This document shows positions 7,767 through 51,638 of a stretch of DNA of 64,000 nt, in pieces. Each line of letters opens with the position of its first letter. Within the stretch, counting starts at the first letter, position 1. Below the pieces are notes generated by a model that was not told the origin of the DNA, searched no databases, and was given only the letters and a program-made list of their open reading frames with translations. A program made the translations under genes and the position numbers. This DNA comes from Spiroplasma mirum ATCC 29335 (GTDB lineage: Bacteria > Bacillota_I > Bacilli_A > Mycoplasmatales > Mycoplasmataceae): NCBI RefSeq assembly GCF_000565195.1, contig NZ_CP006720.1:62001-126000 (forward strand). Reading direction: 5' to 3'.

Positions 7767-9851
7767 ATGGCAAGAGAATATTCTCTAGAAAATACGAGAA
7801 ATATTGGAATTATGGCGCACATTGATGCTGGTAAAACAACAACAACAGAGCGGATTTTATTCCATACGGGAAAAATTCATAAAATTGGTGAAACCCATGA
7901 TGGGGCCAGCCAAATGGACTGAATGGCCCAAGAACAAGAAAGAGGTATTACAATTACTTCAGCGGCCACAACTGCTTTTTGAAAGCATATGCGTATTAAT
8001 ATTATTGATACTCCTGGTCACGTTGACTTTACAGTCGAAGTTGAAAGATCACTACGGGTATTAGATGGTGCTGTTGCGGTGTTAGATGCGCAGTCAGGAG
8101 TTGAGCCCCAAACAGAAACTGTTTGACGTCAGGCTACTACATATAAAGTACCGCGCATTGTGTTTGTTAACAAAATGGATAAAATTGGAGCTGATTTCCT
8201 ATATTCAGTAAAAACAATTCATGAACGTTTACAAGGTAATGGACACCCAGTGCAATTACCAATTGGAGCCGAAGACCAGTTTAGTGGTATTATTGATATT
8301 ATTGAAAGAAAAGCATACCACTATGATGGCCAACCAAATGAAGAAGCGCAAGAAATTGCAATTCCAGATGACATGAAAGATTTAGTTGAAGAATACCGCA
8401 CAAAATTAATTGAAGCGGCTGCTAACTTTGATGAAGACCTAATGATGAAATATTTAGATGGTCAAGATGTTAGTGTTGCAGATATTAAAGCAGCAGTGCG
8501 TAAAGCAACTTTAACTAGTGAATTTTTCCCAGTCTTTTGTGGAAGTGCCTTTAAAAATAAAGGGGTTAAAGCAATGTTGGATGGAGTAATTGACTACTTA
8601 CCGTCACCAGTGGATATTCCTGCTATTAAGGGAATATTTTCAGATGGTACTGAAGTGGAAAGACATGCTTCAGATGATGAACCATTCTCAGCATTAGCCT
8701 TTAAAATTATGACTGACCCGTTTGTTGGAAAACTAACTTTTTTCCGGGTTTATTCAGGAGTCTTGAAAAAAGGAAGCAGTGTTTTAAACTCAACAAAAGA
8801 TAAATCAGAACGAATTGGACGAATTTTACAGATGCATGCTAATAACCGTAATGAAATTGAAGAAGTTTATGCGGGAGATATTGCTGCTGCAGTTGGATTA
8901 AAATTAACAACAACGGGAGATACTTTATGTGATGAAAAAAATGAAGTAATCTTAGAATCAATGGTCTTCCCAGAACCAGTTATTAACTTAGCATTAGAAC
9001 CAAAAACAAAAGCTGACCAAGAAAAAATGAGTTTAGCTTTAGCAAAATTAGCAGAAGAAGATCCAACTTTTAGAACATGAACCGATGAAGAAACTGGACA
9101 AACTATTATTGCCGGGATGGGTGAATTACACCTTGACATCATTGTTGATCGTTTAAAACGTGAGTTTAAAGTTGAAGCAAATATTGGAGCACCCCAAGTT
9201 TCATACCGTGAAACTTTCAAAGAAACCGCCGAAGTTGAAGGAAAATACATCAAACAATCTGGAGGTCGTGGACAATATGGTCATGTTTGAATTAAATTTG
9301 AACCAAACCATGACAAAGGATTTGAATTTGTGGATGCAATTGTCGGAGGAAAAATTCCGCGTGAATTTATTGGGTCTGTTAAAAAAGGACTTGAAGATTC
9401 AATGCAAACTGGGAAGTTAGCTGGTTATCCAATGATTGATATTAAAGCAACTTTATTTGATGGATCATACCATGATGTCGATTCATCACAAATGGCTTAT
9501 GAATTTGCTGCTAGTTTAGCGTTACGGGAAGCTGCTAAAAAAGCAAAACCAGTTATCTTAGAACCAATTATGGCTGTGGAAGTTATTGTTCCTGAAGAAT
9601 ACTATGGGGATGTAATGGGTAACTTGTCTTCACGTCGGGGACAAATTGAAGGAAATGAACAACGGGGAAATGCCCAAGTTGTTAAAGCAAAAGTACCATT
9701 ATCAGAAATGTTTGGTTATGCGACTGACCTTCGTAGTTTTACCCAAGGGAGAGGAACCTACACAATGATCTTCTCACACTACCAAGAAGCACCAAAATCA
9801 GTTACCGAAGAAATTGTTAAAAAATCAGGAAAAGCCGCACCGACTGCTTAA
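7767..9851 (+). CDS. fusA: Elongation factor G
   Basis: GTPase that drives ribosomal translocation and, with RRF, recycling; 694 residues, full length. Starts at ATG 7767 behind AGAAAGGAAA. G1 is [12 protein letters not shown] at residues 17-28, switch-I/II motifs RGITI and DTPGHVDF follow, and NKMD is G4 near 8169-8180. Several TGA codons encode Trp. Domain IV/V sequences near 9240-9800 (for example [10 protein letters not shown] and RGTYTM) are intact. A weak hairpin at about 9858-9875 follows, and tuf has its own promoter. Confidence 0.98.
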
Positions 9852-22483: not shown

Positions 22484-22489
22484 AATAAA

Positions 22490-23651
22490 AAAATTAGTTT
22501 CAAATCATGAGTTTTTATGTAAACATCATACCAGTGGTCGTTATGAAGGAATGAAACACTCTTATGATTTAATGTTAACTTGTGCGGATAGTGATTTTAA
22601 AATTCTGCTGGTAATTCAATAAGATTTAATCAAAGTTATCAAAGAAGGAGATGTTAGTTATTCGTTCTTAGATAATCAATTATTAGAAGCAATTAATACT
22701 TGGTATACTAAATAATATAATTTATCTTTTGCTCGCGAAGAGTTAATTATTGTGAGTGGGGGTTATTCATTTAATGCAAATTGCCTTGAAAGTTTTAACA
22801 AAATCGGGCGATGGAGTTATTGCTCAACCACCAGTTTATGATCCTTTTTATGAAATTATTAAAAATAAAGACCGTAAAATAATTATGAACCATTTATTAT
22901 ATGATGAAGAGTAACAATACTACACAATGAACTTTCTGGAATTAGAAGAATTAATGCAACAACATAAAGCAATGATTTTATGCAGTCCTCATAATCCGGT
23001 GGGAAGAATTTGAAAAGAAGCAGAGTTAGCACAGTTATTATTCTTAGCTGCAAAATATAATGTTTTCATTATTAGTGATGAAATTTGACAAGATATTGTT
23101 TCTAGTAATGTTCAACATCATCCACTTTTTAGTTTTAATTCACCAGCAATTAATCAAGTATTAGTATTATCTTCCCAAACAAAAACTTATAACCTGGCAG
23201 GAGCCCAAATTGGTTATGGGTTATCTTATAACCGTGATTTTATTGTAAAAATGCACCATGAATTAACAAAATCAATTCATTATGCTTCAACTAATTATTT
23301 ATCAGCTAAAATGATTATTAGTGGTTATTTGAACCATGATAATTATGATTGGCTAGCAGCATATAAAACAACGTTAGAAGAAAACTACCATTATTTGGTA
23401 AATGAACTTTTGAAAGGTCAACTAATATCAAATTCACCAGAATTGAAGGAACTTATTTAGGATAGTTAAATATGAGTAAGGTTGTTAAAACATGCCCCCA
23501 GTTAGAGCAAAAATTAGATAGTGTGCATATCCAAGCCATTAATGGTAGTATTTTTTCACCAACTTCCGAACTATTTATCCGGGTTGATTTTGCGCTAGAT
23601 AAAAAAACAATTGCCGAAGTAGCACACCGATTAATTGACTTATTTAAATAA
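22490..23651 (+). pseudogene. PatB/MalY-type C-S lyase (aminotransferase fold), broken
   Basis: Reassembled across several frames it follows PLP-dependent cystathionine beta-lyase/MalY proteins: DVSYSFLDNQLLEAINTW, EELIIVSG, VIAQPPVYDPFYEII, SPHNPVGRIW, IISDEIWQDI and the PLP-lysine region TKTYNLAG. Lesions include stops near 22622 and 22714, a frameshift near 22760, a stop near 22914 and a frameshift near 23450. The start cannot be placed. It probably once supplied sulfur amino acid or beta-cystathionase activity. Confidence 0.7.
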
Positions 23652-23670
23652 TAAAAGTGTTCTTATATGT

Positions 23671-23698
23671 TTACTAACCTCCATTTGCTTGTTATAAT
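23671..23698 (+). promoter_or_regulatory. Promoter of the DUF402 gene, with long leader
   Basis: TTACTA (23671-23676) and TATAAT (23693-23698) with a 16-bp spacer. The start codon is at 23895, so the leader is about 190 nt and contains a 10-bp hairpin, TTAATAATAA with TTATTATTAA (23714-23723 with 23735-23744). The rest of the leader is featureless A/T. Confidence 0.55.
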
Positions 23699-23894
23699 GT
23701 ATATGTTGGCATATTAATAATAAAATAAGAAATCTTATTATTAATTTAATGTAATATATGTGATATTTATTTTTTTAATTTTTACCGAATAATTTAATTT
23801 TAAAGCGACATAGTTATTAAAATTAAGATATTTTAGTGTATTTAATAAAATTAAATAATTAAGTATTAACTATTGACGAAGTGGAGGTGCAATA

Positions 23895-24437
23895 ATGATC
23901 GATGCCTTAAAAGTTGGGGATAGTCTTGTTGTTCACGCCTATAAACATAACGGATCAATTTATCGCTCATGAGAAGAAGCAATTGTGTTAACGATTGAAG
24001 CGGATTATATTGTATTAGTTAATGAAGATGTAACAGTAACTGAAGTTAACGGGCGGAAATGACGAACAAATGAACCAGCAATTTGAATATTTAATAAAAA
24101 AAATTGAAGCAATATTATTTGTATGTTTAAAGATAGTGGCTTAAATTATTATTGTAATATTGCCTCACCATTTATTTTGGATGATAAAACAATTAAGTAT
24201 GTTGACTATGATTTAGATATTAAAGTTTTTACCGACGGTAGTTATAAAATTTTAGATTTAAAAGAATTTAATCGTAATCGCATTGCTTGAAAATACCCTC
24301 GGGAAATTGTTAACATTGTTTGAGCAGAAATTGATAACTTAAAAAAACAAATTAAAAATCGTGAATTTGTTTTTGCTCATGAAGAAGCGCGTAGATTATG
24401 ACATAAATATGTTGATTTCAAAGCTAAACAACGCTAA
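23895..24437 (+). CDS. DUF402 protein (YgaC-like nucleoside di/triphosphatase family)
   Basis: 180 residues from ATG 23895 (AGTGGAGGTG upstream) to TAA 24435-24437, with many TGA-Trp codons. The DUF402 core is visible: RKWRTNEPAIWIF, YYCNIASPF, VDYDLDIKVFTDG and the DLKEF block. Family members hydrolyse nucleoside tri/diphosphates using acidic residues in the DYDLD/DG region. It is one of only two intact protein genes in the decayed 21.7-30.4 kb stretch, so it is likely under selection. Confidence 0.85.
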
Positions 24438-24453
24438 TCTTAGCGTTTTTTTT
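24430..24453 (+). terminator. Intrinsic terminator of DUF402 gene
   Basis: ACGCTA/TAGCGT stem (24431-24436 with 24441-24446), loop ATCT, overlapping the stop codon, then T8. Confidence 0.85.
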
Positions 24454-24537
24454 GTTGTTTTTAATAAAAAAAGTTATTAAAAATTATTTTCGATATATGA
24501 TAAAAATATATGATTTTTTAGTGAAAGAAGTAGTATT

Positions 24538-25180
24538 ATGGCAAAATATAAGTTTCCAGACCAATTTTTATGAGGAAGTGCTTTTTCAGAACCACAAACC
24601 GAAGGAGCTAGTTTAGAAGATGGTAAAGCAGCATCAAATTGAGATCATTGATTCCAAATTGAAAAATATCGGTTTTTTTAACCAAACTCCGTGTTTAAAT
24701 GATTTTTATCATCGTTATCCAGAAGATATTAAAAAATTGCCCGGGGTTTGAATTTTAATTCCCTACGGACATATCAATTCAGTGAACAAGATTAATTCCC
24801 GATGGCAAAAATATCAACCCCAAAGGTGTTAAATTCTATAATAATGTTATTAATGAAATGCTAAAAATAAGATTAAACCAATTATTAATTTATTTCATTT
24901 TGATATGCCTTTTTGAGCCCAAGAAAAAGGTGGCTGGGTTTCGCGTGAAGATGCGGCTGCTTTAAAAGGAATTTATATTCATGTTGAAGTAAAAGCACTT
25001 GCGGAAGCACAATCAGTATTAAATGACTGAGATGTCATTTTACTTGGCCCACAAGTAAAGTTTATGGAAAGAAACATTAAATCAATGACTACAAAACCAT
25101 TATCGGTGATTCCTTCTAATATATATGCCTTAGGGAAAGGGTCTGAAGCATTAGACTTAGCATTAAAAATGTTAGGATAA
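24538..25180 (+). pseudogene. GH1 6-phospho-beta-glucosidase N-terminus fused to PTS EIIB (cellobiose type) C-terminus
   Basis: From ATG 24538 the sequence is GH1: FPDQFLWGSAFSEPQTEGAS, then NDFYHRYPEDIKKL, SIQWTRLIPDGK, LFHFDMPFWAQEKGGW, with a frameshift in a T-run near 24675 and further lesions near 24745 and 24835. Soon after GGWVSRE (about 24940-24970) it passes in frame into the C-terminal two thirds of a lactose/cellobiose-family EIIB: VLNDWDVILLGPQVKF ... ALDLALKMLG, ending at TAA 25180. EIIB's N-terminal phospho-Cys segment and the rest of GH1 are missing, so a deletion joined the two genes. Not functional as either. Confidence 0.75.
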
Positions 25181-25219
25181 CTCCTCCCTATTTAAAATAG
25201 AAGAGAAGGATTTCTATTT

Positions 25220-26665
25220 ATGGGTGAAAATAATAATGATACACAAAAATTTAGACCCGATAAGAAAATAAATTTTCAGGTTCAAAATTTTAAGAATTGA
25301 TGAAATAGTAAAACCCTACCAACTATTTTAAAAATTGGGAATCAACGTCATTTTTCAGCAATTTGGTATTCATTTGGAACAATGACCTCTTGATTATTGC
25401 TCGATCAATTGGGATTTTAATTATTACCATTATCTTTTTTTTGGGGGGGTCAAATAAGATTTCTTTATTAGCCTTATTTACCAAAGCAGGTAATCCTAAT
25501 TGGGATTGAAATGCTAGTTCATTTGAATGACCAACCAAAGCTTGAGCGGATGCTTCCCAAAATGGGGAGTTAGCATTTGGATATATTAATATTGCCATAA
25601 TTGGTGCAATGCCATTATACTTTTCATTTTTATTAGGGTACTTTATTACCTTATCAAGAAACTTTAAACAACCAGTAATGGCTGGATTAGCTTCATTTAC
25701 TGCTTTTATTGTAGCATTTATGGGGCAAGTTTTTTCTTTATGAGTGCCCAAGGATTGATTATGGCATTAATTGTGGCATTATTTACATCTGAACTATTTA
25801 TATGGTTTGGAAATATGAAAAAGTTAGAGGTTAAACTACCCTCGGGAGTACCCCACTGTTGGGAAGTTCTTTGCGGTCTTTTTACCAATGACCTTTACTT
25901 TAGCGAGTGTAGCGTTAGTTAACATTTGTTTCTTAGCACCGGTAATTGCTACAACAGGATGAAGTGTTGACACTTGGCAAAACCTTGTTATTAGTAGTTA
26001 TAAAGGTGGTTCAATTTGACAACCAGCATTTAAAGACTTTACAATTAGTGGTAATGATTTTTTAGAATGAGTTACTAAAACTGGACCATATAAAGATGCT
26101 AATATTGATACCAATTCATTATTTATCAATGGTGCTACTGCGAATATTATTAATGGTTATGGGAATGCTACTGATGTAGTGGGAATTAATAATTATTTTG
26201 ATACAATCCGAAACGGAATGACAAAAGATGGTTATAACTTGTTTGGCCAATATTTAGTTTCGAGATTTGGTGGAGAGATTAAAGGAATTACTAGTTTACA
26301 AGATAGTGTCATTGATATTAAAGCTTCTATGGGAACAACTGGTATTGTTGTAATTTTAGCGGAACGCTGAAACCAAATCCAAGTTCCGACAAACGCCTTT
26401 GGATTCGGAGCAGCAATTTATAAATTCTTTACTTGATAATTCATTGGTTTTGCAACTGGTGATGATGGATTAGGATTAGCAATCTTATATGTCTTTATGA
26501 TTTCATTCTTCTGGTTCTTTGGAGTTCACGGGTCAAATATTATGGCTGCTATCTTCGAACCAATTTGATGGATGATTTTAGGAATTAACACCGCGTTAGT
26601 ATCAACAGGAATGCCAAAAACTGTGAATGAAAATTCTGAGTTAGGAATTTTTGCTAAACCTATCA
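25220..26665 (+). pseudogene. PTS cellobiose-type EIIC permease, frameshifted and 3'-truncated
   Basis: EIIC of the lactose/cellobiose/chitobiose family. Membrane segments and the signature GVHGSNIM (near 26526) with a preceding FMISFFWF segment are recognisable. Lesions include a frameshift near 25390, a G-run shift near 25440, a disruption near 25735-25860 and a TAA near 26440. After SELGIFAKP (about 26660) homology stops abruptly where a minus-strand gene fragment begins, a rearrangement breakpoint. Once the membrane partner of the EIIB at 25180 and EIIA at 28901. Confidence 0.75.
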
Positions 26666-26889
26666 CTGGTTCCAATATAAGCTAAATCATAATTGGCATA
26701 ATCATCAATTAACTCTTCCAAACTATTGTAGACTTTTGCCATTTGATATTTTGCTTGATACTCTTTTTCTTGCTCAATTGTTAAATTATAAATCCCATAG
26801 GGAATAATATCGTTATGATATTTAGTGTTTTTAATATCATCTAAAAATCATCTGGTAATTCTTCCCGCTCCAATAAATACAATTTTCAT
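26666..26889 (-). pseudogene. Gfo/Idh/MocA oxidoreductase, N-terminal fragment
   Basis: Minus strand from ATG 26889 behind AATAGGAGG. MKIVFIGAGRITRWFLDDI is the NAD(P)-binding Rossmann start, and YDLAYIGTSD is the end of the nucleotide-binding strand that normally continues into NSLH. It is cut at about 26666, against the truncated EIIC, leaving about 75 of some 320 residues. Confidence 0.7.
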
Positions 26890-26899
26890 CTTTATCCTC

Positions 26900-27898
26900 C
26901 TATTGATACCAAATATTTCATGTTGATAATTCTGTGGTTAATAATTTTTTAAGGTTGTTCAAATCATCATAGACTAAATTTTCCCCACCACTCGTAATTA
27001 CGCGTTGATATCACACATAAGATAATTTTGGTTTACGCGTTTTGGTTTTACTATTAAAATTAGCCGCTACTAAACCATAATCTTTCCAATAACTACCACT
27101 TGGTGAATAAATATAACAATAAGTTCATAATGAATAACCAATAAAATTAATTCCTTGGGCAACTGCTTTTTAACTTCATTAATATACAATTCTAAATATT
27201 CAATCCGTTCTTCATAAATAATTAATTCGTGAGTCTTATCATCAAAAGCCTCCATTCGATTTTCAATAATCATTAATGGCTTGTGTTACTCCTCAGCTAA
27301 AACTTTAGCCCCCGTTACTAACATTGATGGGTCAATGATCCAGTTTCATTTTGTATAGCGAACATTTTTTTTTGGAAAAACTTGTTTAAAGTCTTTAACA
27401 AAAAAAGTTGCACTTTCAATTTGCATTTTACCAGGTTACTTTTGGTAATCACCTTTGGTAATATAACAAGGCCGATAGTAATTTCATCCAATTAAATCTA
27501 ACGGATATTTTTTTAAAAATTCTAAATCAGCTGGTAAAATTTGATAGTCAATTTTATTTTCATCCATTCATGTCAAGAATTCGGGGGGGGGTATGTTCCT
27601 TTTAAGTTAGGATTCAAGAAAAATTCTTAAATTATTTATCATATTTTTTAGCTGCCGAGTTATCATCTCTCTGATAAGGAATTGCTGGTGACCAGTCATG
27701 GTCAATTCATAACATTGCATCGTGGGGAACATATCCCGCTTTTTTGCTAATTTAAACTCTTCTTTGACAATTGCTCCGGTCAAATGTAAATGATGGAGAG
27801 CTTTCATAAAGCTAGCTTTATTTTTTTCGCTCGCGGGTAAATAATCATCAAGATAACCTAATAAGGTAAAAGTTGAATTTTCATCATTAACAAATCAA
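26900..27898 (-). pseudogene. GH1 6-phospho-beta-glucosidase, C-terminal two thirds, broken
   Basis: Minus strand, ending at TAG 26900-26902 (WYQ). From the upper end: a degenerate acid/base region (FVNDENSTF in place of the usual FNEPN), ALHHLHLTGAIV, LNPNLKGTYPP, KYPLDLIGWNYY, then the nucleophile motif as IIENR with the usual ENG altered, and ERIEYLELYINEV plus an aromatic C-terminus. Several frameshifts (near 27175, 27290, 27440 and a G9 run near 27580). It lacks exactly the N-terminal third that is present as a separate fragment at 24538. Confidence 0.7.
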
Positions 27899-27917
27899 AT
27901 TTTGCTATACTTTATAG

Positions 27918-28869
27918 AAAAATATCTTAGTTATTGATTTAGGGGGAACAATTGATAAATGTGCAGTTTTTCCCAACAAAAAGACATTATCTTAGAATTT
28001 TTAATTCCAACTAATTTAAATAATATTTTACTTAATATTAAACATGGAATTGATAAGCAATTTATCAAACATCAAATTGACTAATCTTTAATTAAAGCAA
28101 TTGGTTTTGCAATCCGGGGGTTTTTAGATGATAAAGCTGGGGTAATTACTTTAGCAGGAAACTTAGGATAAAAAAATTTTAATATTCGTTCAGAAGTCGC
28201 GGCAATCTTTAATAAAGAAATTTATATTATTAATGATACTAATGCAGCAGCGTTAGGAGAATATTGATGTGGGGACCATGGTGATACCGCAACCCTTGCT
28301 TTATACACTTTAGGAACCGGAATTGGTGGAGGATTAATCCTGAATGGCAATCTTTGAACAGGAACAACTGGTTATGCGGGCGAATTTAGTCATGGCGGGT
28401 CATTTTCAAGATAAATATTTGTGTACTTGTGGACTCCAACATTGTATTGAACCAGTGTCTTCTGCAAACAGGGTTAACTAAATTATTAAATGAGCAAGCT
28501 AACCAAAACCCAGAAAGTAGTTTAGGCAAATTAAAAGCAAAGTTAGGCGATCATTTAAAATTATTAGACATCAAAGAATTATTTGAACAAAAAGATTTGT
28601 TGACAACAACTACCATTTTCGAAGGATTAATTCCCTTAGCCAATCATATTGCTATTTTGTTATATATTCTTAATCCGCAAGCTATTATTTTAGCGGGGGT
28701 GTCACTAATTTAGGGGGTAATTTAGCAGAAATTATTAATGAGTTAGTAAAGAAACGGATGGGGGATTTTAATCCTCCCAACCTTTAAAATTGAAATTTCC
28801 AAATTACAAGCCAAAGTGGGGGTATGCTGAACTGCTTATTATGCTTTTAAAAATAGTGGATTACTATAA
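27918..28869 (+). pseudogene. ROK-family sugar kinase, broken
   Basis: ILVIDLGGT (near 27924) is the phosphate-1 motif, IINDTNAAALGEYW and TLGTGIGGGLI are ROK signatures, GEFSH and CTCGLQHCIE give the zinc-binding motif, and AIILAGG the adenosine motif. Stops near 28083 and 28168 and frameshifts near 28410, 28475 and 28700. No start codon precedes ILVID; the 5' end abuts the equally truncated GH1 gene. Final TAA 28867-28869. Formerly phosphorylated glucose or an amino sugar. Confidence 0.75.
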
Positions 28870-28900
28870 AATATAAATATAAATAAAGGAGAACAATAAA

Positions 28901-29233
28901 ATGAAACAAATAAATTTTGAAGAAATCTCATTTGGAATTATTACTTTTGCAGGAATGGCCAAATCAATTGGAATTATGGCAATCAAATCAGCGAAAGAAG
29001 GAAAAATTAGTGAAGCGTGGGGATTAATTACCGAAGCTGAACAAAATCTTGTGGAAGCTGAAAAAACACATATAGATGTTATCAAACAAGAAGCCCAAGG
29101 GGTCAAACACCAAATCTCCGTCTTATTTATGCATGCCGAAGACCAGATGATGACTAGTCAAATGGTTGTTGAATTAGCCAAAGAATTTATTAACTTATAC
29201 GAAAAATTATTAGCAAAAAAAGTTATTGATTAA
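28901..29233 (+). CDS. PTS lactose/cellobiose-family EIIA
   Basis: 110-residue all-helical EIIA, normal length. ATG 28901 follows AAAGGAGAAC. The phosphorylated His lies in LFMHAEDQMMTSQ near residue 78, and the Ala-Glu-rich helices typical of the family are intact with no TGA or frameshift. Its EIIB and EIIC partners (24538-26665) are both pseudogenes, so it either serves a PTS elsewhere in the genome or has not yet accumulated lesions. Confidence 0.9.
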   Translation: MKQINFEEISFGIITFAGMAKSIGIMAIKSAKEGKISEAWGLITEAEQNLVEAEKTHIDVIKQEAQGVKHQISVLFMHAEDQMMTSQMVVELAKEFINLYEKLLAKKVID

Positions 29234-29252
29234 ATAAAAGGAGCTTATAATA

Positions 29253-30382
29253 ATGAATGTTAGAATTGGAACAAGTATTTTTATTCATTTGTTGGCAGAT
29301 GACTTTAATATTGAAAAATACTTAACAACTTGTGCGGAGCATAAGATTAGTTTTATTTTTACAACTTTAATTGGTTTTCAAAAAAAAAAAAAATAACCAA
29401 AAATTATTTACTAAAATGAAAGCATTTACAAAAAAAGCGCAGGAATTAAAGATTGCGGTCTACAGTGATTTAGACCAGCATCTGTTTAATAAGTTTAACA
29501 TTGATAAAAATAATCGCGAAGAAATGATGGCTTTTTTTGTTCAACAATTAGGGCTAAGTGGAGTACTATTTGACGATAGGGTGACTGGCCCTCTGGCATT
29601 ACAAAATTATCCAATAATGACAAAAATATTAAAGTAATTTTAAATGGTACTGATTCGGGCAGAGAACTTGAATATATTATTTCTGCAAATGCTAACAAAG
29701 AAAATTTAATTAGTTGTTGAAATTTTTATTCGCAACGTTACACGGCGAGTTTGATTGCTTTTTACTGAACGGTTGGCATATGCCCATGAGTGTGGAATTA
29801 AAATGCAATCTTTTGTTACTCTCCAACGAATAGATACTGTCGGGACCTGAACTTATAATGATAAATTACCCAGTTTAGAATTTTACCGTGATTTACCATT
29901 AGATTTTCAGATTCGTCATTTAATGGCAATGGGGTTTGAAGATATTGTGATTTCAACCCAGTTTATCAATGAGGAAAAATTTGCAATTGTCAAAAATATC
30001 AATTTGAATAAGATTAGTTTAGCAATTGATGTTAATCCTGAACTATCACCAGTTGAGCGAGCAATTTTATTTGACCAAGAGATTCATTTTGTGCGCCAAG
30101 ATCTAGCCGAATATATTATTCGTAGTACCTGGTCACGAATAAAATACCGAGAACAAGATATCCCAATCCCGGAGCAAGTAAAAGAATACCAACCGGGGGA
30201 TGTTTTTTATTTTTAATAAATAAGGCAAAAAATTATGCGGGAGAGTTACATATTATTTTGAAACCAATGCAATGCCTAATGATGGAATCCACAATTTGGT
30301 TGGTCATTTAGATGAAAATGAACAAGAAATTTTTAAATATTTACAACCAAACACCGAGTTTGTGTTTAATCAGAAAAGATAA
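29253..30382 (+). pseudogene. DUF871/MupG-like 6-phospho-glycosidase, frameshifted
   Basis: Starts at ATG 29253 behind AAAAGGAG, 19 nt after EIIA. MNVRIGTSIFIHL, GVLFDDRVTG, ILNGTDSGRELEYII, FVTLQRIDTVGTW and the C-terminal KNYAGELHII domain match DUF871 (MupG, which hydrolyses 6-phospho-muramyl disaccharides). Frameshifts occur in an A13 run near 29380-29393, near 29610, 29760, 30217 and 30255. Together with EIIA/B/C, GH1, Gfo and ROK it marks a lost disaccharide-PTS operon. Final TAA 30380-30382. Confidence 0.7.
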
Positions 30383-49597: not shown

Positions 49598-50838
49598 ATG
49601 GAATATAAAAAATTAATTTTAGTTTTAGATTTAGGAATTTCATCATGTGGTTGAGCAATTACAAATCAAACGCAAGAGGGCAAATGAATTTTAGAAGACT
49701 TTGGAGTAAGGTTATTTCAGATACCTGAAGATTCAAAAGATGGTATTACAAATGCTGAAGCAAGAAGATTGAAACGTAGTGCGAAAAGATTAATTAGACG
49801 AAGAAAAAATTCTAAAGAAGATTTAATAAAATTATTTGAACGTATTGATTTTCTTAATAAAGAAGATTTAAAAAACTATATTAATAGTCATAGTGCAACT
49901 AACTTAGTTGATGATTTTAATCGTAAGGAATTATATAATCCTTACTACTTACGATACATTGGTTTAGATAATTAACTTACAAAAGAAGAATTAGTTTGAT
50001 CTTTAATTTATATTGCAAATAGAAGAGGATATAGTAATAAATTTTCTTTTGGTGATAAATTACCGAAAGGATTAGAAGAAGCAATCAAAAGTGCTACTCT
50101 TAATAAAAATTATCGTACATTATCGGAAGAAATTATTAAAAATTCAAAATATCGTGATCCTAATAATTTAAAAGCAATTCTTGTTAGAAATAAGGGTGTT
50201 AAGGAAGGAGAAGAAAATTTTCAGTATCTTTTTTCACGAACTGATTATATAAATGAAGTTCAATTGTTATTACAAAATTAATCTACATATTATCCTATTT
50301 TAACAGAAACCAATATTAAAAATATTATTGGTATTATTTTTCGTCAACAGGATTTTGAAGATGGGCCAGGACCTAAAAATGAAAAATTAAGAAAATTGTA
50401 TAAAGAAAAAAATAAACAGTTTTCTAAAAATTTTACGCAATTAGAAGGCCGATGTTCATTTTATCGTAATGAAAAAGTTGATTTTAAATCATCAATTTTA
50501 TTTGATATTTTTCATGTGGCATCTGAAATTTTAAAAATTAGTAAATATATTAAAGGTAAGGAAATTTTAGCTAAGAAAATTATTGATAATTTTTTCTATA
50601 ATGACCAAAATAAAAAAAGCAAAACACTACTAAAAAAAATTCTAAAATAACATATTGATGAAAATATTTTTGATAGCCCTGCTTATAAAAATATAGAATT
50701 TAAAACTAAATATTTAAATCTTTTAAAAAAAAGAAGTTTTTGGTTTTGATGTATTAAAAGATGTTGATATCAATAATTTAAATAAGAACATCTATTATGA
50801 ATTAGAAGAAATTATTCATACAAAAAATAATGAGTGTT
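49598..50838 (+). pseudogene. cas9: Cas9 N-terminal fragment with three in-frame TAA stops
   Basis: ATG 49598 behind AAGAGGAAAA. LILVLDLGISSCGWAI is RuvC-I with the catalytic Asp; EARRLKRSAKRLIRRRKNS is the Arg-rich bridge helix; KEELVWSLIYIANRRGY, FRQQDFEDGPGPKNEK and LEGRCSFYRNEK are REC/Cas9 blocks of the mollicute type II family. TAA at 49973-49975, 50279-50281 and 50648-50650 interrupt one continuous frame; a frameshift follows in an A8 run near 50735. Homology-like sequence fades near 50838. HNH, RuvC-II/III and the PAM-interacting domain are absent from the window, so no nuclease can be made. Confidence 0.85.
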
Positions 50839-50980
50839 AATAATGCAATTAATTATATGAAAAAGTTTTATTACTTGTTTAAAAGAATCAAATCCAGAGT
50901 TACTTAAATTACCAACATTATTATTAAATGATTATGAAGAAGATGAAGAGGAATATGAAATCAATGAAGAGGGAGAGTAG
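50839..50980 (+). pseudogene. Probable Cas1 C-terminal remnant
   Basis: A frame between the cas9 and cas2 remnants reads IIWKSFITCLKESNPELLKL with PTLLLNDYEEDEEEYEI and stops at TAG 50978-50980, ten nt before the cas2 start. Position and the KSF..CL....LLKLP pattern resemble the C-terminus of type II Cas1, which precedes cas2. The catalytic part is missing. Assignment rests mainly on gene order. Confidence 0.45.
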
Positions 50981-50990
50981 ATAACGATAA

Positions 50991-51291
50991 ATGCGAATGT
51001 TTGTATTTTTATGACTTACCTAATACGGCAAAAATGGATACTAAGAATTATACTAAATTTCATAAATTTTTAATTAAAAACGGTTATTATATGATTCAGT
51101 ATTCTATTTATTGTAAGTTATGTTTAAATTATGATGAAGTTAATAATAATAATAATAATAATATGATTAATTTACATAAGCCGCCAAAAGGTAATGTAAG
51201 AATTTTAATAGTTACAGAAAAGCAATATGAATCAATAATACCACAGTTCGAATTATGAATTTTAATTTATATGAAGATTTTACCTCAGTAA
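50991..51291 (+). pseudogene. cas2: Cas2, frameshifted
   Basis: ATG 50991. The N-terminal strand MRMFVF is in one frame and YDLPNTAKMDTKNYTKFHKF in the next: one extra T in the run at 51006-51010 separates them. IKNGYYMIQYSIYCKLCLN and KPPKGNVRILIVTEKQYESI match type II Cas2. An (AAT)7 microsatellite at 51142-51162 inserts seven Asn, and the C-terminus departs from the family after KQYES. Cas2 forms the spacer-integration complex with Cas1. Confidence 0.8.
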
Positions 51292-51638
51292 AAGAAGTTA
51301 AAATTGGGGTGGGGATTGCAAATGATTTGAAGAAAAGTTGAATTGAAGGAGTTGATAAGGATGAGTATTTTACTGTTTCTATTGAAGAAGTAACCAAGGA
51401 TTGTGTGGAAACAGCGGAATATTATGCCGCCGAAACAGTAATATTTAATAATTTACCAGTTTGTACTGATGCTTGAGTATATTATAATCTTAGTAAAGAA
51501 AGTCAGGAATTCATCCGTAAAAATATGCGCCAATATTTTAATTCACGAATGGTTCACCAAAGATTATTTACTAATTTAATTGATAATGACATTAAAAAAC
51601 AAATTGAACAAGGAAATTTACAAATTGATGATGAATAG
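51255..51638 (+). CDS. Hypothetical protein beside the decayed CRISPR locus
   Basis: 127 residues from ATG 51255 to TAG 51636-51638 with TGA-Trp at KKSWIEG and TDAWVYY. Acidic, predicted soluble, mainly helical C-terminal half (FIRKNMRQYFNSRM). I do not recognise a family. The start overlaps the end of cas2 and lacks a ribosome site, so the true N-terminus may be elsewhere or lost in the deletion. Intact frame and its own strong terminator argue that it was or is expressed. Confidence 0.55.

What the first reader, a model, noticed from the sequence alone, without database searches (positions are those of the whole stretch)
49598..51291. Decayed type II CRISPR-Cas locus: cas9 N-third, cas1 tail, cas2, no array
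RuvC-I, the bridge helix and part of REC of Cas9 remain, then a deletion leads to a probable Cas1 tail and a frameshifted Cas2. No repeats are visible within several kb. Cas9 decay here is by three in-frame TAA codons (49973, 50279, 50648) in an otherwise open 1.1-kb frame, unlike the indel decay elsewhere, so homopolymer sequencing error cannot explain it. Loss of CRISPR fits known Spiroplasma exposure to plectroviruses.
Basis: partly seen in the sequence, partly recalled or inferred. Interest (0 to 1): 0.66.

Follow-up and report, generated by a model that had tools for sequence, protein, structure and literature searches.

The report
Dead CRISPR-Cas9 remnant in a spiroplasma
This is the wreck of a bacterial antiviral (CRISPR-Cas9) locus, broken beyond function by two deletions and several stop and frameshift mutations; that this species has a degraded system was already published, but relatives turn out to carry matching fossils, some still holding readable memories of mobile elements.

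Summary
Confirmed and ordinary. Window 49598-51236 is a dead type II-A CRISPR-Cas locus: Cas9 residues 1-407 of 1,097, the last ~50 residues of Cas1, and Cas2 to about residue 80. Against the closest relative (G003, 89% identical Cas9) two deletions explain the structure: ~3,036 bp (rest of Cas9, tracrRNA, most of Cas1) and ~1,857 bp (Cas2 end, Csn2, leader, repeat, half of the next gene). All three TAA codons are CAA (Gln) in G003. No second Cas9 or Cas1, no Csn2 and no related repeat was found elsewhere in the genome. Degradation and lack of an array in S. mirum (the likely source) are in print, as is decay in Mirum-clade relatives. The plectrovirus explanation fails here: plectrovirus ORF1 is absent from this genome.

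By-product, not found in the papers searched: several relatives without cas9 keep one-repeat fossils of the same locus. One is cut at cas2 by plectrovirus DNA; two share a spacer matching phage-like copies in another genome; one has a spacer exactly matching its own genome. Csn2 is present where the literature says II-C.

The parts
49598..50710 (+). cas9 remnant, residues 1-371, first frame (RuvC-I, bridge helix, part of REC; domain names by recall and by alignment)
   Evidence: PADLOC Cas9 E 2.7e-41; 89% identity to G003 Cas9; alignment of G003 residues 6-254 to a solved Cas9
49973..49975 (+). in-frame TAA; CAA (Gln) in G003, AAG (Lys) in G010 and G013
50279..50281 (+). in-frame TAA; CAA (Gln) in G003, G010 and G013
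50648..50650 (+). in-frame TAA; CAA (Gln) in G003, AAA (Lys) in G010 and G013
50725..50728 (+). +4 A insertion against G003, frameshift
50730..50822 (+). cas9 remnant continued, residues 377-407, shifted frame
   Evidence: tblastn 90% to G003
50821..50825 (.). deletion junction 1: 3,036 bases of G003 (rest of cas9, tracrRNA, most of cas1) are missing here
   Evidence: breakpoint scan, 57 of 60 matches
50825..50980 (+). cas1 tail, with a -2 frameshift at 50860/50861
   Evidence: stop codon read
50991..51236 (+). cas2 remnant to about residue 80, +1 T frameshift at 51006, C-terminal end missing
51236..51237 (.). deletion junction 2: 1,857 bases of G003 (end of cas2, csn2, leader, repeat, first half of next gene) are missing here
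   Evidence: breakpoint scan, 86 of 90 matches
51237..51638 (+). C-terminal half (residues 124-256) of the downstream gene of unknown function, truncated by junction 2; not a cas gene

Best explanation
The locus is a non-functional remnant (pseudogene cluster) of a type II-A CRISPR-Cas system of the order cas9 - tracrRNA - cas1 - cas2 - csn2 - leader - array, still seen in relatives. In the window lineage two deletions removed the Cas9 nuclease parts and C-terminal region, tracrRNA, most of Cas1, the end of Cas2, Csn2 and whatever was left of leader and array (shown by alignment). Nonsense and frameshift mutations broke what remained (shown). Neither interference nor spacer acquisition is possible from it (inferred). 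The loss is part of wider gene decay in this region under relaxed selection or drift (inferred), and was recent relative to the split from G003 (inferred). The source is most likely Spiroplasma mirum (inferred).
For: Two clean junctions against G003, with G010 and G013 also having the missing parts, so the window lost them. Three stops and three frameshifting indels. 19 amino-acid changes on the window branch against 4 on the G003 branch (p = 0.0026). No replacement Cas9 or Cas1, no Csn2, no related repeat elsewhere in the genome. In the syntenic region 36 of 56 G003 ORFs are intact, 16 broken, 4 absent.
Against: dN/dS of the remnant against G003 is still only 0.235, so it was under constraint for most of the time since the split; this fits late death but is not neutral over the whole branch. 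Reads were not available. An array with an unrelated repeat elsewhere was not excluded.
Confidence: 0.97

Rival explanations
1. The lesions are sequencing or assembly artefacts of an intact locus.
For: The +4 A and +1 T lie in homopolymer runs; reads could not be seen.
Against: Three substitutions to TAA and an excess of amino-acid changes on this branch at residues invariant in relatives are not homopolymer errors. Two deletions with single junctions in a one-contig genome, and no missing piece elsewhere in it. PMC6882279 and PMC4607517 report decay in the same species or clade.
Confidence: 0.02
2. Plectrovirus pressure caused or followed the loss in this genome.
For: Across the genus most plectrovirus-rich genomes lack cas9; in G004 plectrovirus DNA abuts the cas2 remnant.
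Against: 0 matches of SpV1 ORF1 in this genome and in G003; G010 has cas9, 25 repeats and 6 plectrovirus matches. Neighbouring non-defence genes decay as well. Only one plectrovirus protein was used as query.
Confidence: 0.05
3. A shortened Cas9 or Cas2 piece is kept for another role.
For: The first cas9 frame (49598-49975) keeps its start codon, and a 96-residue Cas2-like frame is open from TTG 51001.
Against: The Cas9 piece lacks all later nuclease parts and carries changes at residues invariant in relatives, e.g. G9V, R63K, R72S. The Cas2 frame lacks its first residues and its last ~22 and ends in unrelated sequence.
Confidence: 0.02

Closest known systems
Degraded type II CRISPR-Cas of Spiroplasma mirum ATCC29335 (Ipoutcha et al. 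2019, PMC6882279)
   Same: Named there as a more or less degraded form, and as lacking an array (section 10 and passages read). Very likely this very locus.
   Different: Breakpoints, origin of the stops and the Csn2 question are not in the parts read; species identity of the window is inferred.
Decayed CRISPR of S. atrichopogonis and S. eriocheiris (Lo et al. 2015, PMC4607517)
   Same: Same clade; S. atrichopogonis has cas9 truncated and cas1 absent; S. eriocheiris has cas9 and cas2 intact, cas1 truncated (passages), which fits G003.
   Different: They report cas2 intact in S. atrichopogonis; here cas2 is frameshifted and truncated. That genome is 1,160,484 bases, this one 1,132,608.
Type II-A locus of G003 / G010 / G013 (unnamed genus genomes)
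   Same: Homologous cas9, cas1, cas2; G003 syntenic on both sides.
   Different: Csn2, tracrRNA and repeat are deleted in the window; present in those genomes, though each of them has a lesion of its own.

Membership tests
Type II CRISPR-Cas (as ancestry) | Cas9 | tested here: met
   Remnant matches PADLOC Cas9, E 2.7e-41
Type II CRISPR-Cas (as ancestry) | cas1 and cas2 beside cas9 | tested here: met
   Remnants of both
Type II CRISPR-Cas (as a working system) | complete Cas9 with RuvC-I/II/III and HNH | tested here: not met
   Residues 408-1097 deleted and absent from the genome
Type II CRISPR-Cas (as a working system) | tracrRNA | tested here: not met
   Lies inside deletion 1; G003 tracrRNA gives no match in the window. 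The genome outside the window was not searched for it.
Type II CRISPR-Cas (as a working system) | CRISPR array | tested here: not met
   No array in the window; 0 related repeats in the genome within 3 mismatches. An unrelated repeat was not excluded.
Subtype II-A | csn2 | tested here: inconclusive
   Absent here, but the syntenic G003 locus and G013 carry a Csn2 ORF, PADLOC E 1.1e-122 and 1.2e-120, so II-A ancestry is inferred.

The most novel reading that the evidence does not exclude
The window is one of several deaths of one ancestral type II-A system across Spiroplasma. Of 14 genus genomes examined, none holds an undamaged copy. Genomes without cas9 keep one-repeat fossils of it, with spacers that still match mobile elements, one of them an exact match in the same genome, and one fossil cut by a plectrovirus. 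The dead loci would record which elements were resisted before the defence was lost, and would show that lineages said to have lacked CRISPR had it and lost it.
Probability: 0.6. Interest if true: 0.5.

Novelty: already known. Interest (0 to 1): 0.28.

Why it matters
For the window itself little: it adds breakpoints and substitution-level causes to a loss already reported. It also removes one argument: this genome lost CRISPR yet shows no plectrovirus ORF1, so loss did not lead to plectrovirus build-up here. The fossils in relatives matter more. [quoted passage not shown] citri, S. kunkelii and S. melliferum. One-repeat relics with csn2 and cas2 remnants in plectrovirus-rich genomes point to ancestral presence and loss, and their spacers make the question of which elements were once kept out testable.

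Tried and rejected
Scans of genome contigs with the remnant and with a three-sequence Cas9 alignment gave no relative; near relatives may be left out of that collection, so this is not evidence of absence. Pfam RuvC_III in the own genome gave 0, but its control rang nowhere, so that result was not used. Array regions of G010 and G013 against phage records: 7 weak, chance-like matches and none. The 30-mer before the G001 repeat matched nothing else in 14 genomes. Exact scans of viral contigs for two relic spacers (one of them cut to 27 bases): none. The spacer shared by G004 and G006 is not in the three pieces of phage MaM-2019a fetched, although the surrounding G007 DNA resembles that phage. 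The G005 protospacer region is not clearly viral: no PHROG and no phage protein match for its main ORF, only a 146-base match to plectrovirus DNA at its edge. A common 3' flank (CAC) beside both kinds of protospacer was noted, but two cases are too few for a PAM.

Full report
What is there. The window is G000:C1:62001-126000 of a single-contig genome of 1,132,608 bases. Its closest Cas9 relative among 14 genus genomes is G003, whose contig length of 1,365,714 equals that given for S. eriocheiris in PMC4607517 (passages read). The genome is therefore close to the Mirum clade; its size differs from that of S. atrichopogonis (1,160,484), and by recall it fits S. mirum. Species identity is thus inferred.

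Anatomy. PADLOC identifies window 49598-50710 as Cas9 (E = 2.7e-41) and 51001-51291 as Cas2 (E = 8.2e-30). Pfam gives no match for the Cas9 remnant but gives Cas2 at 2.4e-12. The relative G003 (L005) has cas9 of 1,097 residues, tracrRNA, cas1 in two frames, cas2, a 391-residue Csn2 and one repeat. Against it the window keeps Cas9 residues 1-377, then 377-407 in a shifted frame, then jumps to the cas1 tail and cas2. Junction 1 (break near 50821-50825) lacks 3,036 bases of G003; junction 2 (break at 51236) lacks 1,857. The lost Cas9 part includes G003 residues 496-786, which align with solved Cas9 structures and hold, by recall of the motifs, RuvC-II, HNH and RuvC-III. G010 and G013 also have the missing parts, so the difference is a loss in the window, not a gain in G003.

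Point lesions. All three TAA codons are CAA in G003; at the second, G010 and G013 also have CAA, at the other two they have lysine codons. Small indels against G003 in the locus are +4 A (50725-50728), -2 (50860/50861), +1 T (51006) and +6 in frame (51141-51146). Polarised with G010 and G013, 19 amino-acid changes fall on the window branch and 4 on the G003 branch, with 12 unresolved and the stops not counted (binomial p = 0.0026). dN/dS between window and G003 is 0.235 for the remnant, against 0.033, 0.161, 0.06, 0.054 and 0.134 for five neighbours with open frames. If the gene had been neutral since the split, roughly 90 nonsynonymous changes would be expected on the window branch (my estimate from dS); 19 to 31 are seen. 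Death was therefore probably recent relative to that split. This is inference.

Rest of the genome. The missing Cas9 part: 0 in own, present in 3 of 14. Cas1: only the 39-residue tail in own, matches in 4 of 14; the Pfam Cas1 model gives 0 in own and rings in 9 of 14 controls. PADLOC Cas9 model: this place only. Csn2: 0 in own, 5 of 14. Repeat within 3 mismatches: 0 in own, 7 of 14 genomes, reversed-pattern control 0 throughout.

Context. In the syntenic region 56 ORFs of 150 residues or more in G003 were compared: 36 intact in the window, 16 broken, 4 absent. Of these last two groups, two ORFs lie at or past the window end, and one 'broken' ORF is covered almost full length without stops. The broken ones include the permease and membrane protein just upstream and the gene just downstream. 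The CRISPR locus decays along with its neighbourhood.

The plectrovirus claim. SpV1 ORF1 as query gives 0 in own and also 0 in G001, G003, G009 and G013; 9 of 14 genomes match. G010 has 6 matches and still has open cas9, cas1 and cas2 frames and 25 repeats. PMC8208695 (passages) says prophages are few or absent in strains with CRISPR or remnants; PMC12453411 (passages) reports exceptions in both directions.

Literature. PMC6882279 (passages and section 10) lists S. mirum ATCC29335 as degraded and without an array. PMC4607517 (passages) reports degradation in two Mirum-clade species. So the finding is known in outline; breakpoints and stop-level causes were not in the parts I read.

By-product 1, subtype. 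PMC6882279 places S. eriocheiris and S. syrphidicola in II-C; for S. syrphidicola it says that csn2 remained undetected. G003 and G013 (1,107,344 bases; S. syrphidicola by recall) carry a Csn2 ORF between cas2 and the repeat or array, matching PADLOC Csn2 at 1.1e-122 and 1.2e-120. They would be II-A.

By-product 2, no undamaged copy in 14 genomes. G010 has a broken csn2; G013 has cas9 in two pieces; G003 has a frameshifted cas1 and one repeat without a spacer; the other 11 have no match to the rest of cas9. In G003 the single repeat and the tracrRNA anti-repeat carry matching changes relative to G010, and each of the three tracrRNAs pairs best with the repeat of its own genome. The system was therefore probably functional after those lineages separated (inferred).

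By-product 3, fossils. G001, G003, G004, G005 and G006 have a single repeat within 3 mismatches. G004 has plectrovirus ORF1 fragments up to L035:9624 and cas2 from codon 59 at 9626, then a csn2 pseudogene, leader, and repeat-spacer-degenerate repeat. G006 has a csn2 remnant from residue 60 and the identical spacer; DNA next to it partly resembles phage MaM-2019a. That spacer matches 13 places in G007 with 2 or 3 mismatches, reversed control 0; a 3-kb stretch around one of them is 65% covered by a MaM-2019a record at 89%, although the phage pieces fetched lack the protospacer. The 30 bases before the G005 repeat match its own genome exactly elsewhere and G012 with 1 mismatch; the similarity is confined to exactly those 30 bases, and 30 is the usual spacer length of the G010 and G013 arrays. 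In G001 the flank of the repeat equals the flank upstream of cas9 in G013, as if the whole locus but one repeat had been deleted. The listings showed no paper describing these relics; five papers were opened in part (PMC6882279, PMC4607517, PMC12453411, PMC8208695 and PMC11176537). The number of independent losses needs a species tree, which I did not build.

Verdict.

Noticed in passing
L035 8275-11080 (G004): Plectrovirus ORF1 fragments end at 9624 and cas2 resumes at codon 59 at 9626, followed by a csn2 pseudogene, leader, and repeat-spacer-degenerate repeat: a CRISPR fossil cut by a plectrovirus.
   Followed up: partly
L037 8520-9664, minus strand (G006); protospacers in G007, e.g. L046 1501-1530: csn2 remnant plus a one-spacer array with the same spacer as G004; the spacer matches 13 phage-like places in G007 with 2 or 3 mismatches.
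   Followed up: partly
L036 9414-9471 (G005); protospacer L050 1501-1530: Single fossil repeat whose adjoining 30 bases match exactly another place in the same genome, with no similarity beyond those 30 bases.
   Followed up: partly
L034 9592-9660 (G001): One repeat, preceded by a spacer-like 30-mer, joined to the flank that lies upstream of cas9 in G013, as after deletion of the whole locus.
   Followed up: partly
L005 12145-13320 (G003), L007 6812-7981 (G013): Clear Csn2 ORFs (PADLOC E 1.1e-122 and 1.2e-120) in systems that PMC6882279 calls II-C.
   Followed up: yes
L005 7407-13400 (G003): Intact cas9 and tracrRNA kept beside a frameshifted cas1 and a single repeat without a spacer; repeat and tracrRNA show matching changes. 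Only 4 amino-acid changes on this branch in the N-terminal third. Whether this Cas9 still has a role is open.
   Followed up: partly
window 22485-30216: A run of genes that are open in G003 and broken in the window (eight broken, one absent among those compared), two of them on the opposite strand relative to G003.
   Followed up: no
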